Assembly: GCF_000014045.1 (NCBI RefSeq)
Contig: NC_008209.1
Span: 3,061,001-3,125,000, forward strand
Source: Roseobacter denitrificans OCh 114
GTDB taxonomy: Bacteria; Pseudomonadota; Alphaproteobacteria; Rhodobacterales; Rhodobacteraceae
Direction of reading: 5' to 3'
DNA length: 64,000 nt
Of the stretch, positions 17,451-31,269 are shown piece after piece. The first letter of the stretch is position 1. Each line of letters opens with the position of its first letter. The notes beneath the pieces were generated by a model that made no database searches, was not told the origin of the DNA, and worked only from the letters and a program-made list of their open reading frames with translations. Made by a program: the position numbers and the translations under genes.

Positions 17451-18259
17451 CACAGACGATCCTTGATAAAATCAAAGCCTACAAACTCGAAGAGATTGCC
17501 CGCGACAAAGCCGAAACGCCGCTTGAGGCGGTGGAGGCCTTGGCGCGAGAAGCCAGCCCCGTGCGCCCCTTTGCCGAAGCTCTGTTCCGGGCCTCGACCG
17601 AAGGCTATGGGCTGATCGCCGAGATCAAGAAAGCCAGCCCTTCCAAGGGTCTGATCCGCGCGGATTTTGACCCCGCGGTGCTGGCGGCGGCCTATGCGGA
17701 AGGCGGTGCGACCTGTTTGTCGGTGCTGACCGACACGCCCAGTTTTCAGGGGGCCAAGGACTACCTCGTGGCAGCGCGTGCGGCTTGCGATCTGCCGGTG
17801 TTGCGCAAGGATTTCATGTATGACCCCTATCAGGTGGCCGAGGCGCGCAGTCTGGGTGCCGATTGCATCCTGATCATCCTCGCCTCCGTCAGTGATGCGC
17901 AGGCGCAGGAACTGGAAGAGGCCGCGTCCGAATGGGGCATGGATTGCCTGCTCGAAGTGCATGACGCCGAAGAGCTTGAGCGCGCCAGCATGCTGAAGAG
18001 TCGACTGATGGGCATCAACAATCGCAACCTCAAGACCTTTGAGACCACGCTGGACACGACGCGGCAATTGTCCAAATCCGTGCCGGCGGATCGGCTGATC
18101 GTGTCTGAATCCGGCTTGAACACGCCCGAGGAACTGGCCGATATCGCCCGCTATGGCGCGCGTATCTTCCTGATCGGGGAAAGCCTGATGCGGCAGGATG
18201 ATGTGACGCTGGCCACGAAAAAGCTGCTTGAGAAACCTGCCATGGCGGGGGGGATGTAG
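17447..18259 (+). CDS. trpC: Indole-3-glycerol phosphate synthase
   Basis: A 270-residue (beta/alpha)8 enzyme that closes the indole ring of indole-3-glycerol phosphate. [44 protein letters not shown] and [12 protein letters not shown] are the expected barrel motifs with the catalytic lysines and glutamate. It is a stand-alone TrpC, not fused to TrpF. ATG at 17447 overlaps the ung stop (ATGA). moaC begins one base after its stop. Confidence 0.97.
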
Positions 18260-18260
18260 C

Positions 18261-18740
18261 GTGAGCGGCAAGCTGACCCATTTTGATGGCAAGGGCGATG
18301 CCCAGATGGTGAATGTGGGGGACAAAGCGATCACGGACCGGATCGCGGTGGCCACATGCTTCATCAGGATGAAACCCGAAACCCATGAAATCATTACGCA
18401 CGGCCGCGCGAAAAAGGGTGATGTGCTTGGTGTGGCGCGGCTGGCAGGGATCATGGCGGCTAAGCGCACGTCCGATCTGATCCCGCTGTGTCATCCGCTG
18501 CCGATCACCAAGGTCGCCGTGGAACTTACGCCTGATGCGCAATTGCCCGGCGTGCGGATTGAGGCCACGGTCAAGACAACGGGCCAGACCGGTGTCGAGA
18601 TGGAGGCGCTGACAGCGGCCAATATCGCCGCCCTCACCGTCTATGACATGTGCAAGGCCGTCGACAAGGGGATGGAGGTCGGTGGCTTGCATGTCGTTTT
18701 GAAAGATGGCGGCAAATCCGGCCGGTACGAAGCGCCATGA
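18261..18740 (+). CDS. moaC: Cyclic pyranopterin monophosphate synthase
   Basis: A 159-residue enzyme that, after MoaA, makes cyclic pyranopterin monophosphate in molybdenum cofactor synthesis. Motifs [31 protein letters not shown] and [21 protein letters not shown] are characteristic. The start is GTG at 18261, giving [15 protein letters not shown]; an earlier ATG in frame lies inside trpC and is rejected. Its stop overlaps moeA by four bases. moaA is not in the window. Confidence 0.96.
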
Positions 18741-19909
18741 TCTCTGTCGCTGAGGCGCTGGCGCAGCTGTTTGCGCTGGTGGAAGAGGTTGACAGCGAGA
18801 TCGTACCGCTGCGCAATGCCGCTGGCAGGGTGCTGGCCAGGGACGCCGTCGCGGCGCGCACGCAACCGCCGTTTGCCGCCTCCGCCATGGATGGTTATGC
18901 CCTGCGCGCCAGCGAAGTCGAACCGGACGCCATGTTCAAGGTCATCGGCGAGGCTGCGGCAGGTCATGCGTTTGATGGCCCTGTCGGACCCGGCCAATGC
19001 ACGCGCATTTTCACCGGCGCGCCCGTTCCCGAGGGGGCGGATCAGGTGGTGCTGCAAGAGGATGTCACCCGGCGCGGCGATCTGATCACGCTGGGCCACA
19101 GGGTGGAGGCGAAATCGAACATCCGACCGGCGGGGGGTGATTTTAAAGCCGGCGACACGCTGAAGGCGCCGCGCGTTCTGTCCCCGTCTGATATTGCGCT
19201 TTTGGCTTCGATGAACATCGCCGAGGTGCCGGTCGCGCGCGCGCCCACGGTCGCGATTGTTGCAACGGGCGATGAGCTGGTCGCCCCCGGCGAAGACCCC
19301 GGACCGGATCAGATCATCGCCTCCAACAGCTACGGGCTGGCGGCTTTGCTGGAAAAACACGGCGCACACTGCCGCCTGTTGCCCATCGCACGCGACACCG
19401 AAGAGAGCCTGACCGCGGTGCTTGAACTGGCGTCAACGGCCGATCTTATCATCACCATTGGCGGTGCCTCTGTCGGCGATCATGATCTGGTGGCGCCGGT
19501 GGCCGAGAAAATGGGAATGGAGCGCGCGTTCTACAAAGTGGCAATGCGCCCCGGCAAACCCCTTATGGCGGGGCGGCTTGGGACGTCGGCCCTCGTTGGC
19601 TTGCCCGGAAACCCTGTATCTGCAATGGTTTGCGGGACGATCTTTGTTGTGCCCCTGCTGCGCGCCATGCTCGGGTTGGGACGGGCGGCGGCAACGCGCG
19701 GTCAGCTGCCGCTCGCCCAAGCCCTACCGTCCAACGGGCCGCGCGAACACTACATGCGCGCATGTCGGACGGCGGAAGGGCTGGTCGCCTTTGATCGTCA
19801 GGACAGCTCCTTGTTAAGCATCCTGTCGAACGCGGACGCCTTGCTCGTCAGACCGCCGCACGCGCCCGCGGCACCAATCGGGACTCTGGTCGATTACATT
19901 GATCTGTAA
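18737..19909 (+). CDS. moeA: Molybdopterin molybdenumtransferase
   Basis: A 390-residue enzyme that inserts molybdate into adenylylated molybdopterin. Domain order is the usual one: MoeA N-terminal region ([22 protein letters not shown]), the MoCF-binding domain ([50 protein letters not shown]) and a C-terminal domain IV. ATG at 18737 overlaps the moaC stop (ATGA). The gene ends 69 bases before lexA, which has its own SOS-regulated promoter. Confidence 0.95.
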
Positions 19910-29553: not shown

Positions 29554-30144
29554 TCACTTTGTCGCGGGGGTCTTCACAGCACTTTGCCACTCCTCAAGCG
29601 CGGCATTGCCATCGGGCTGCAGCGCCAGGGTTTTCAGTCGCACATCCCCAGCCGTATCAGCCGAGCCGGGTGTCGTGGCGCGCAGGCTTTGCAACATGCC
29701 GATGTTTTCGACGACTTTTGGGGCGAGGGCCACGCTTTTGGCGATGGATTGCTGGAATTGCTGGCTTTTGACCTGATGACGCGCACCAAAGTAAAAGGAC
29801 ACGACCACCCCAAGCAACCACCACAAGGGTTCCGGCACCAATGCGATTCCCTGCATGCGCGCTGCAAACCAGATCGGATCAACCATGGCCGCCAGGAACA
29901 ACCCAAGCGTTCCAAGTGCCAGCGCAGGGCGCGGAATACGGTTCACCCCATCCATCAGACGGTTGAATGCAGAGTCATTAGCGCTTTCGAACTCGCGCCC
30001 ATGCTGGTTCAGGGCCTGAAGGCGCAACTCCTGCGCGCGCGCAGCACCCTCCTCCGCGTTGGCTCTGAAAACTTCAACGGTTTCCTTTACAACGTTACGA
30101 TCATTGCCAAAAACAATGTTCAACAACCCTCCGATCAAGCCCAT
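29554..30144 (-). CDS. Holin, GTA 3-TM type
   Basis: A 196-residue membrane protein of the GTA_holin_3TM type. At least two strong membrane segments are seen (about residues 72-92, PALALGTLGLFLAAMVDPIWF, and 103-120, PLWWLLGVVVSFYFGARH) after a charged, helical N-terminus (MGLIGGLLNIVFGNDRNVV). In gene transfer agent producers such as Rhodobacter capsulatus, a holin of this kind and an adjacent muramidase release particles by lysis. Here the gene is intact and overlaps the muramidase by 10 bases. The family could also have a housekeeping role in envelope maintenance. Confidence 0.8.
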   Translation of the reverse strand: MGLIGGLLNIVFGNDRNVVKETVEVFRANAEEGAARAQELRLQALNQHGREFESANDSAFNRLMDGVNRIPRPALALGTLGLFLAAMVDPIWFAARMQGIALVPEPLWWLLGVVVSFYFGARHQVKSQQFQQSIAKSVALAPKVVENIGMLQSLRATTPGSADTAGDVRLKTLALQPDGNAALEEWQSAVKTPATK

Positions 30145-30747
30145 GACGCAACCCTTTCTTGAAACTGCTCATCTGTGAGGTGATAGCGCGCCGAGATGAA
30201 TTCTTCCGCGCGCTTGATCCACCCCCCTTTGCCACCGGCGCGGGTTCTTGCGAACTTCCGGCTTGCCGCCCGACGGTCGCCAATTCGAAAATAGTAGTTC
30301 CGGCGCGCAATGCCGTAGGCATCCACCAGATGTTCAGGCGCATGCGAAAACGCGGCCTGCGTGGCACCGATGCTCTTGGGTCCCAGCGCGCCATCGACGA
30401 CCAGATCATGCCCCATATCGCGCAACAAGCGTTGCAGGATCTTGATCGCATTTGACCCGGCATTTACATACATGTCGAAAACGGTCGCATGCAACGGTTG
30501 CGGCAACATGGCGATCAACGGCTTTTGAAAATAGTGTTTTTCAAATATCTCAATCGCCTGGTCGGCGGTAAGCGCGCGCACGTCCGCCACGGTGACCGAC
30601 CCGTCCCGATCAAGGTCAAGGCCAAGCCTGCGCATCGTATGTATTGTGACGCCAAAGTTTGTTGCACCGCCGGGATCGTCGGGAATCATCAACGAACCCG
30701 CCCTCTCGCCGCACGATGTCTCTTGCGATCTCACGAACTGTCTGCAT
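30135..30747 (-). pseudogene. Holin-associated N-acetylmuramidase (glycosyl hydrolase 108 type), frameshifted
   Basis: Peptidoglycan hydrolase of the GH108 type, the endolysin partner of the adjacent holin. From the ATG at 30747 (site AAAGGTAG) the frame reads MQTVREIARDIVRREGGFVDD, with the catalytic glutamate in REGGF, then breaks. The continuation PDDPGGATNFGVTIHTMRRL lies in the next frame from about 30683. Removing one of the two A bases at 30684-30685 (plus strand) restores the family motif DDPDDPGGATNFG and an open frame of 204 codons. Read as it stands, translation stops at 30616 after 43 residues; restarting at the ATG at 30689 would lose the catalytic residue. True mutation, sequencing error, or programmed slippage are all possible. 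The rest, including the C-terminal peptidoglycan-binding part, is intact. Confidence 0.85.
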
Positions 30748-30794: not shown

Positions 30795-30812
30795 GGTTAA
30801 AATCGCTTAACC
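30795..30812. promoter_or_regulatory. TTAA palindrome upstream of the lysis cassette
   Basis: GGTTAAAATCGCTTAACC is a six-base inverted repeat (GGTTAA/TTAACC) around six bases. It resembles the CtrA site TTAA-N7-TTAA but with a spacer of six. It lies 48 bases before the muramidase ATG, between it and the ccmE stop. Confidence 0.35.
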
Positions 30813-30825
30813 ACAGCGTACGCAG

Positions 30826-31269
30826 TCAGCCCTCGGTGCCCTTGTAGACGCCTTGCTCCTTCAGCATATCGACCACTTCCGCAGGCATGTAGGTCTCGTC
30901 ATGTTTCGCAAGTATCTCAGATGCTTCGAAGACGCCGTTAATGTAACTTCCGGTCCCGACCATCCCTTGATTCTCTTCAAAGAGATCAGGCAGAACACCG
31001 GTGTAAGTCACCGGGACCACACCGTTGCCATCTGTCACGCTGAAGCGGATGGTCTCGCCCTGACCGCGCACGATGGACCCCTCTTCGACCAGGCCGCCGA
31101 TCCGGAACACTTCGGTGGGCGCAGGCGGTTCGGCCAGAATTTGCGTCGGCGCGCGAAAAAAGTTGATACCGTCACGCATCGCATACCCGATCAGCGCCGT
31201 CGACAGAACAAGCGCAACCGTTGCCAGCGCTATGACTTGAATGCGTCTTTGCTTCTTCAGGTTTTTCAT
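30826..31269 (-). CDS. ccmE: Haem chaperone CcmE
   Basis: A 147-residue periplasmic haem carrier of cytochrome c maturation, anchored by one N-terminal segment (about 11-29). The covalent haem-binding histidine is in KHDETYMP. The OB-fold strands VFRIGGLVEEGSIVRG and YTGVLPDLFEENQGMVG match the family. The ATG at 31269 follows GAGGCGGAC. It is preceded by argC (seven-base gap) and followed by the lysis genes rather than directly by ccmF. Confidence 0.95.
   Translation of the reverse strand: MKNLKKQRRIQVIALATVALVLSTALIGYAMRDGINFFRAPTQILAEPPAPTEVFRIGGLVEEGSIVRGQGETIRFSVTDGNGVVPVTYTGVLPDLFEENQGMVGTGSYINGVFEASEILAKHDETYMPAEVVDMLKEQGVYKGTEG

What the first reader, a model, noticed from the sequence alone, without database searches (positions are those of the whole stretch)
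30135..30747. One-base frameshift in the GTA-type lysis muramidase
The protein reads MQTVREIARDIVRREGGFVDD and then leaves frame; removing one A from 30684-30685 restores DDPDDPGGATNFG and an open frame of 204 codons. As it stands, the catalytic glutamate (REGGF) is separated from the rest of the enzyme. If this cassette is the gene transfer agent release system, as the orthologous endolysin/holin pair is in Rhodobacter capsulatus (rcc00555/rcc00556, as I recall them), a true mutation would block particle release while leaving production intact, a cheater-like or domesticated state. Programmed slippage at this site is another possibility.
Basis: partly seen in the sequence, partly recalled or inferred. 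Interest (0 to 1): 0.75.

Follow-up and report, generated by a model that had tools for sequence, protein, structure and literature searches.

The report
Broken lysis gene, intact gene-transfer agent
In the marine bacterium Roseobacter denitrificans, one extra DNA base breaks the enzyme thought to burst cells and let out gene-carrying particles, while the other particle genes that were checked look intact, so the strain may make particles it cannot release.

Summary
The minus-strand gene 30747-30135 is a holin-associated N-acetylmuramidase (NF040573; GH108 + PG_binding_3) followed by an overlapping GTA_holin_3TM gene. An extra base at 30684-30685 splits it: the start frame gives 43 aa with the REGGF glutamate; the rest is open in another frame, 184 aa from an internal ATG. 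In 109 of 109 related loci motif and body share a frame. It is probably real: the 184-aa protein is counted in 86 contigs, the identical neighbouring holin in 85; among 120 hits listed no full-length endolysin exceeds 93% identity. It is young: substitution counts show no relaxation. The main GTA cluster genes recognised, a GafA-type gene, a DUF2793 gene and the holin are open. Best reading: recent loss of function expected to impair GTA release, as disruption of rcc00555 does in R. capsulatus (PMC3423380 passage). Programmed slippage is not supported; 'cheater' is untested and doubtful, since the holin is intact. The sister R. litoralis has a different lesion, a stop in terL.

The parts
30616..30747 (-). 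Start-frame fragment of the endolysin gene, 43 aa, with REGGF (expected catalytic glutamate, recalled) and early stop at 30618-30616
30684..30685 (.). Site of the extra base: AA on the + strand, out of frame relative to 109 of 109 related loci
30135..30689 (-). Endolysin body frame from the internal ATG (184 aa; equals database protein P0001); a longer GTG-started reading of the same frame, 199 aa, begins at 30734
29554..30144 (-). GTA_holin_3TM holin, 196 aa, intact; its start overlaps the end of the endolysin body frame by 10 bases
30795..30812 (-). Promoter-region element TTAACC at -53 from the endolysin ATG, with GGTTAA at -65 (resembles a CtrA half-site; that motif is recalled)
   Evidence: TTAACC at -47 to -56 in 17 of 29 relatives; not in R. 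litoralis L003; putative CtrA half-sites at the lysis promoter of R. capsulatus: PMC9638019 passage
30826..31269 (-). ccmE, the upstream neighbour, used as control gene for substitution counts

Best explanation
In the Roseobacter denitrificans OCh 114 lineage the endolysin of the Rhodobacterales gene transfer agent has recently lost its reading frame. Ribosomes that start at the normal ATG make a 43-aa dead peptide. Any protein started at the internal ATG (184 aa) lacks the N-terminal region with the glutamate expected to be catalytic, so it should be an inactive muramidase that may still bind peptidoglycan. Holin, the TTAACC promoter element and all main-cluster, activator and tail-fibre genes that I recognised and checked are open. 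Predicted outcome: particles can be made and packaged, but release is strongly reduced because the cell wall is not cut. Shown: the lesion, its absence from the relatives examined, its count in the protein database, its youth, the open state of the rest. Inferred: loss of enzyme activity, block of release, any meaning for fitness.
For: Frame split and early stop. The truncated protein is counted in 86 contigs and the identical holin in 85, each with one member sequence; no full-length endolysin above 93% identity among the 120 hits listed. No relaxation: synonymous:nonsynonymous 25:7 here, 29:6 in R. litoralis, Fisher P = 0.76; more than about a tenth of the branch without selection is disfavoured (P = 0.043 at 0.10, 0.005 at 0.15). 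GTA cluster genes open, GafA-type DUF6456 and DUF2793 genes open, holin single and intact. No second GH108 and no PF00959 match in the genome. rcc00555 disruption phenotype: PMC3423380 passage.
Against: No activity or release measurement. The 86 contigs could not be opened, their sources are masked, and with one member sequence they may all be one strain. The lack of relaxation would also fit a gene whose function is kept by some bypass. PMC3423380 itself cautions that other conditions have an effect similar to rcc00555 disruption. R. capsulatus-type lysis genes are reported absent from GTA-releasing Caulobacter (PMC9632790 passage), so other release routes exist. Three cluster genes have more nonsynonymous changes here than in R. 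litoralis (capsid 23 against 14, g7 8 against 1, g11 8 against 1).
Confidence: 0.75

Rival explanations
1. Sequencing or assembly error in the deposited genome, copied into other records; the gene is intact in the cell.
For: A single base; no relaxation of selection in the body; raw reads not available here.
Against: 86 contigs are counted with the truncated product against 85 with the holin, and no full-length variant above 93% identity is listed. No other frameshift was flagged in the window against R. litoralis (55 ORFs each way; 44 and 46 covered over 90% by one open frame), but that scan did not flag the endolysin either, so its power for short terminal shifts is low.
Confidence: 0.08
2. 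Programmed or leaky +1 slippage at the site makes enough full-length enzyme, perhaps as a brake on lysis.
For: The body remains under purifying selection. The codon after the site, CGA, is rare here (6.0% of arginine codons in 9 genes, 3468 codons).
Against: 109 of 109 related loci are in frame without any shift. I recognise no known slippery motif at GAT TCC CGA (judged from memory, no call).
Confidence: 0.07
3. The truncated 184-aa product, or an unrelated hydrolase, still carries out lysis, so GTA release is little changed.
For: A 184-codon frame with an internal ATG remains, with a purine-rich GAGGGCGGG stretch upstream. A GTA-bearing Caulobacter was reported to lack homologues of the R. 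capsulatus lysis genes (PMC9632790 passage).
Against: The product lacks the EGG[FYW] motif found in 109 of 109 relatives and the first 16 positions of NF040573. No second GH108 and no PF00959 match in the genome; other hydrolase families were not searched.
Confidence: 0.1

Closest known systems
R. capsulatus RcGTA lysis pair rcc00555 (endolysin) / rcc00556 (holin)
   Same: Adjacent muramidase and holin genes, encoded away from the main GTA cluster (passages); the same kind of pair as here (PF05838 + PF09374 with PF11351, NF040573).
   Different: Here the endolysin is frameshifted. Direct sequence comparison with rcc00555 was not made, as that sequence was not fetched.
Pseudogenised GTA systems in alphaproteobacteria, proposed as recent cheater lineages (PMC10883770 passage)
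   Same: A broken GTA gene in a lineage whose relatives keep the system.
   Different: There pseudogenisation of GTA gene clusters is meant; here the lesion is in a separate release gene and the main cluster is open.
R. litoralis OCh149 endolysin (P0003, 203 aa)
   Same: Closest named orthologue, 92% identical over the body, same neighbours (holin).
   Different: Intact reading frame; but its own GTA terL has an in-frame stop.

Membership tests
NF040573 holin-associated N-acetylmuramidase / GH108 endolysin | Sequence match above the curated cut-off | tested here: met
   Body frame scores 316.8 bits against cut-off 240 (NF040573) and 68.9 against 21.2 (GH108)
NF040573 holin-associated N-acetylmuramidase / GH108 endolysin | N-terminal EGG[FYW] motif (expected catalytic glutamate; role recalled) in frame with the body | tested here: not met
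   Out of frame here, in frame in 109 of 109 relatives
NF040573 holin-associated N-acetylmuramidase / GH108 endolysin | Muramidase activity | not testable with these tools
   Needs an enzyme assay
RcGTA-type gene transfer agent | Main structural cluster present with open genes | tested here: met
   C1:2891588 to about 2905620; genes recognised from terS-like ORF to g15 open; gene labels by order are recalled
RcGTA-type gene transfer agent | GafA activator, tail fibre, holin present | tested here: met
   DUF6456 395-codon frame, DUF2793 372-codon frame, PF11351 one match; GafA homologues are annotated as DUF6456 or helix-turn-helix proteins (PMC9638019 passage); DUF2793 as tail fibre is recalled
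RcGTA-type gene transfer agent | Head spike genes, other accessory genes | not tested
   No query at hand
Programmed frameshift | Shift site conserved among relatives | tested here: not met
   109 of 109 relatives in frame
Long-standing pseudogene | Raised nonsynonymous rate and further lesions | tested here: not met
   25:7 against 29:6, Fisher P = 0.76; no further stop in the body frame

The most novel reading that the evidence does not exclude
R. denitrificans OCh 114 is a natural 'make but do not release' gene-transfer-agent strain. It and its sister type strain R. litoralis OCh149 have each recently lost a different step (release; DNA packaging) while their structural genes stayed under purifying selection, which would point to repeated selection against GTA activity, in nature or in culture collections.
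Probability: 0.2. Interest if true: 0.6.

Novelty: new member of a known kind. Interest (0 to 1): 0.42.

Why it matters
If true, a model strain is a ready-made release mutant: it would let the cost of making GTA particles be separated from the cost of lysis, and it predicts poor gene donation by this strain. It also warns that surveys which score only the main GTA cluster would call such a genome GTA-competent although a separately encoded release gene is broken.

Tried and rejected
Programmed slippage: not supported, because the relatives need no shift. Old decay: rejected on substitution counts (parsimony against the majority of other congeners, with 23 of 90 endolysin differences unresolved and dropped). 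Poor sequence quality of the window: no other shift flagged, with low power as said; its 9 and 8 flags were in-frame stops with no second frame nearby, most of which I take for antisense or spurious ORFs, unchecked. An exact-pattern scan of viral contigs found 0 matches. Plasmids gave 5 Paracoccus records at 60-80% identity; phages gave 182 records, all below 60%. A paper search with five terms (gene transfer agent, lysis, frameshift, pseudogene, Rhodobacterales) held no paper. The lists (7 of 7 papers; 12 of 49 listed; 15 of 87 listed) showed none that by title or abstract start describes this lesion; most were not opened, so this is no proof of absence in print. For a literature residue number of the GH108 catalytic glutamate, and the passages of PMC12642591 gave none; that role is recalled. 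The truncated R. litoralis TerL was not among the 120 hits listed, so its stop was not confirmed elsewhere. The first half failed (bad BLAST option, empty rows) and was redone. In one search two rows from wrong-frame ORFs of G004 show stops in most genomes (6 of 7 and 7 of 7 others) and were disregarded; the g15 row shows stops because its query has an upstream extension, the ORF itself being 1314 aa in G000. A structure prediction was not run.

Full report
WHAT WAS CHECKED. The minus strand from 30747 reads MQTVREIARDIVRREGGFVDD, leaves frame, and stops at 30618-30616 after 43 aa. The frame that holds the rest of the enzyme runs to 30137-30135 and carries GH108 (profile from position 14) and PG_binding_3. 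NCBIfam names it NF040573, holin-associated N-acetylmuramidase, matching profile 17-200 of 200, whereas the intact R. litoralis protein matches 1-200. The two A's on the + strand lie at 30684-30685 as reported.

WHOSE GENOME. G000 has 4,331,234 bases in five contigs with a 4,133,097-base chromosome. A table in PMC3141670 (passage) gives R. denitrificans 4,133,097 + 106,469 + 69,269 + 16,575 + 5,824, which sums to 4,331,234, and R. litoralis OCh149 a chromosome of 4,505,211, the length of the G012 contig. The window is therefore taken as R. denitrificans OCh 114 and G012 as R. litoralis OCh149.

RELATIVES. A body-frame search found a match in 59 of 99 genomes, G000 included, among them 18 of 18 other genomes of the genus. 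In loci L003-L111 (29 and 80, overlapping in species) EGG[FYW] is in frame with the body in 109 of 109. With the intact protein as query 172 of 198 family genomes match, G000 included; in the listed rows G000 begins at residue 16 and all others at 1-6, and not all rows were listed. In the data seen the lesion is confined to this lineage.

ERROR OR REAL. The protein database counts the 184-aa product of the internal ATG (P0001, one member sequence) in 86 contigs; the adjacent holin (P0121, 100% identical, one member sequence) in 85. The nearest full-length endolysin among the 120 listed is 93% identical. So nearly every contig counted with this holin appears to carry the broken endolysin. The sources are masked and the contigs could not be opened, so their independence is inferred, and all may descend from one strain.

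AGE. On the R. denitrificans side since the split from R. litoralis the endolysin body took 25 synonymous and 7 nonsynonymous changes, the R. litoralis side 29 and 6 (23 of 90 differences unresolved and dropped). The holin gives 28:11 and 30:11, ccmE 17:1 and 32:1. Under a simple Poisson model more than about a tenth of the branch without selection is disfavoured. The lesion is recent, or function is kept by some bypass.

THE REST OF THE SYSTEM. The main cluster lies at C1:2891588 to about 2905620, minus strand. Against R. litoralis and six other congeners the cluster genes that I recognised are open in G000. Synonymous:nonsynonymous totals over 11 genes, terL left out, are 454:114 (G000) and 519:115 (R. 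litoralis); three genes have more nonsynonymous changes in G000 (capsid 23 against 14, g7 8 against 1, g11 8 against 1) and others fewer. A GafA-type DUF6456 gene and a DUF2793 gene are open at the same frame length as in R. litoralis (395 and 372). The holin is single and intact. A TTAACC element lies at -53 from the endolysin ATG; it occurs at -47 to -56 in 17 of 29 relatives, not in R. litoralis. No second GH108 and no phage-lysozyme (PF00959) match was found. Head-spike genes and other hydrolase families were not tested.

MECHANISM. In R. capsulatus, disruption of rcc00555 lowered gene transfer and left intact particles inside cells, though PMC3423380 cautions that other conditions have a similar effect and that lytic activity had not then been shown directly (passage). 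PMC6209664 (passage) cites later evidence: overexpression in E. coli lyses cells and a knockout lowers release of cytoplasmic components. The predicted state of OCh 114 is production without efficient release. The holin start overlaps the end of the endolysin frame by 10 bases, so early termination at 30616 could also lower holin translation; this is inference. With the holin intact, producer cells may still die, so the change does not obviously pay as cheating; a neutral or culture-derived loss is as likely in my view.

A SECOND LESION NEXT DOOR. The terL of R. litoralis reads TAG where R. denitrificans reads TGG, at codon 350. Four near-identical TerL records, P0241 and P0249-P0251, read W there (two share a contig length and may be one contig). 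A stretch of about 2 kb that spans terL and the ends of its neighbours is 99-100% identical between the two species in 500-base bins, against 75-93% in the rest of the cluster, and terL differs at 11 bases only: it was exchanged recently. Whether the R. litoralis stop is real was not established.

VERDICT. Probably a real, recent, lineage-specific loss of a known gene, with a clear test: more than an artefact, less than a new mechanism.

Noticed in passing
L126:4582-5994 (R. litoralis, G012:C3): The GTA large terminase gene has an in-frame TAG at codon 350, where G000 and four near-identical records have tryptophan.
   Followed up: partly
L113 about 17500-19500 against L126: About 2 kb spanning terL is 99-100% identical between R. 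denitrificans and R. litoralis, against 75-93% in the rest of the GTA cluster: a recent exchange.
   Followed up: partly
G003:C14:83313-87826 and G005:C13:66889-71393: Two congeners carry a second GTA_TIM gene with a distant GH108 relative a few kb away, perhaps a second GTA-like element or prophage.
   Followed up: no
G012:C3:3710436-3745768: R. litoralis has a second DUF6456 gene and a second DUF2793 gene about 35 kb apart, perhaps a GTA-like or prophage island.
   Followed up: no
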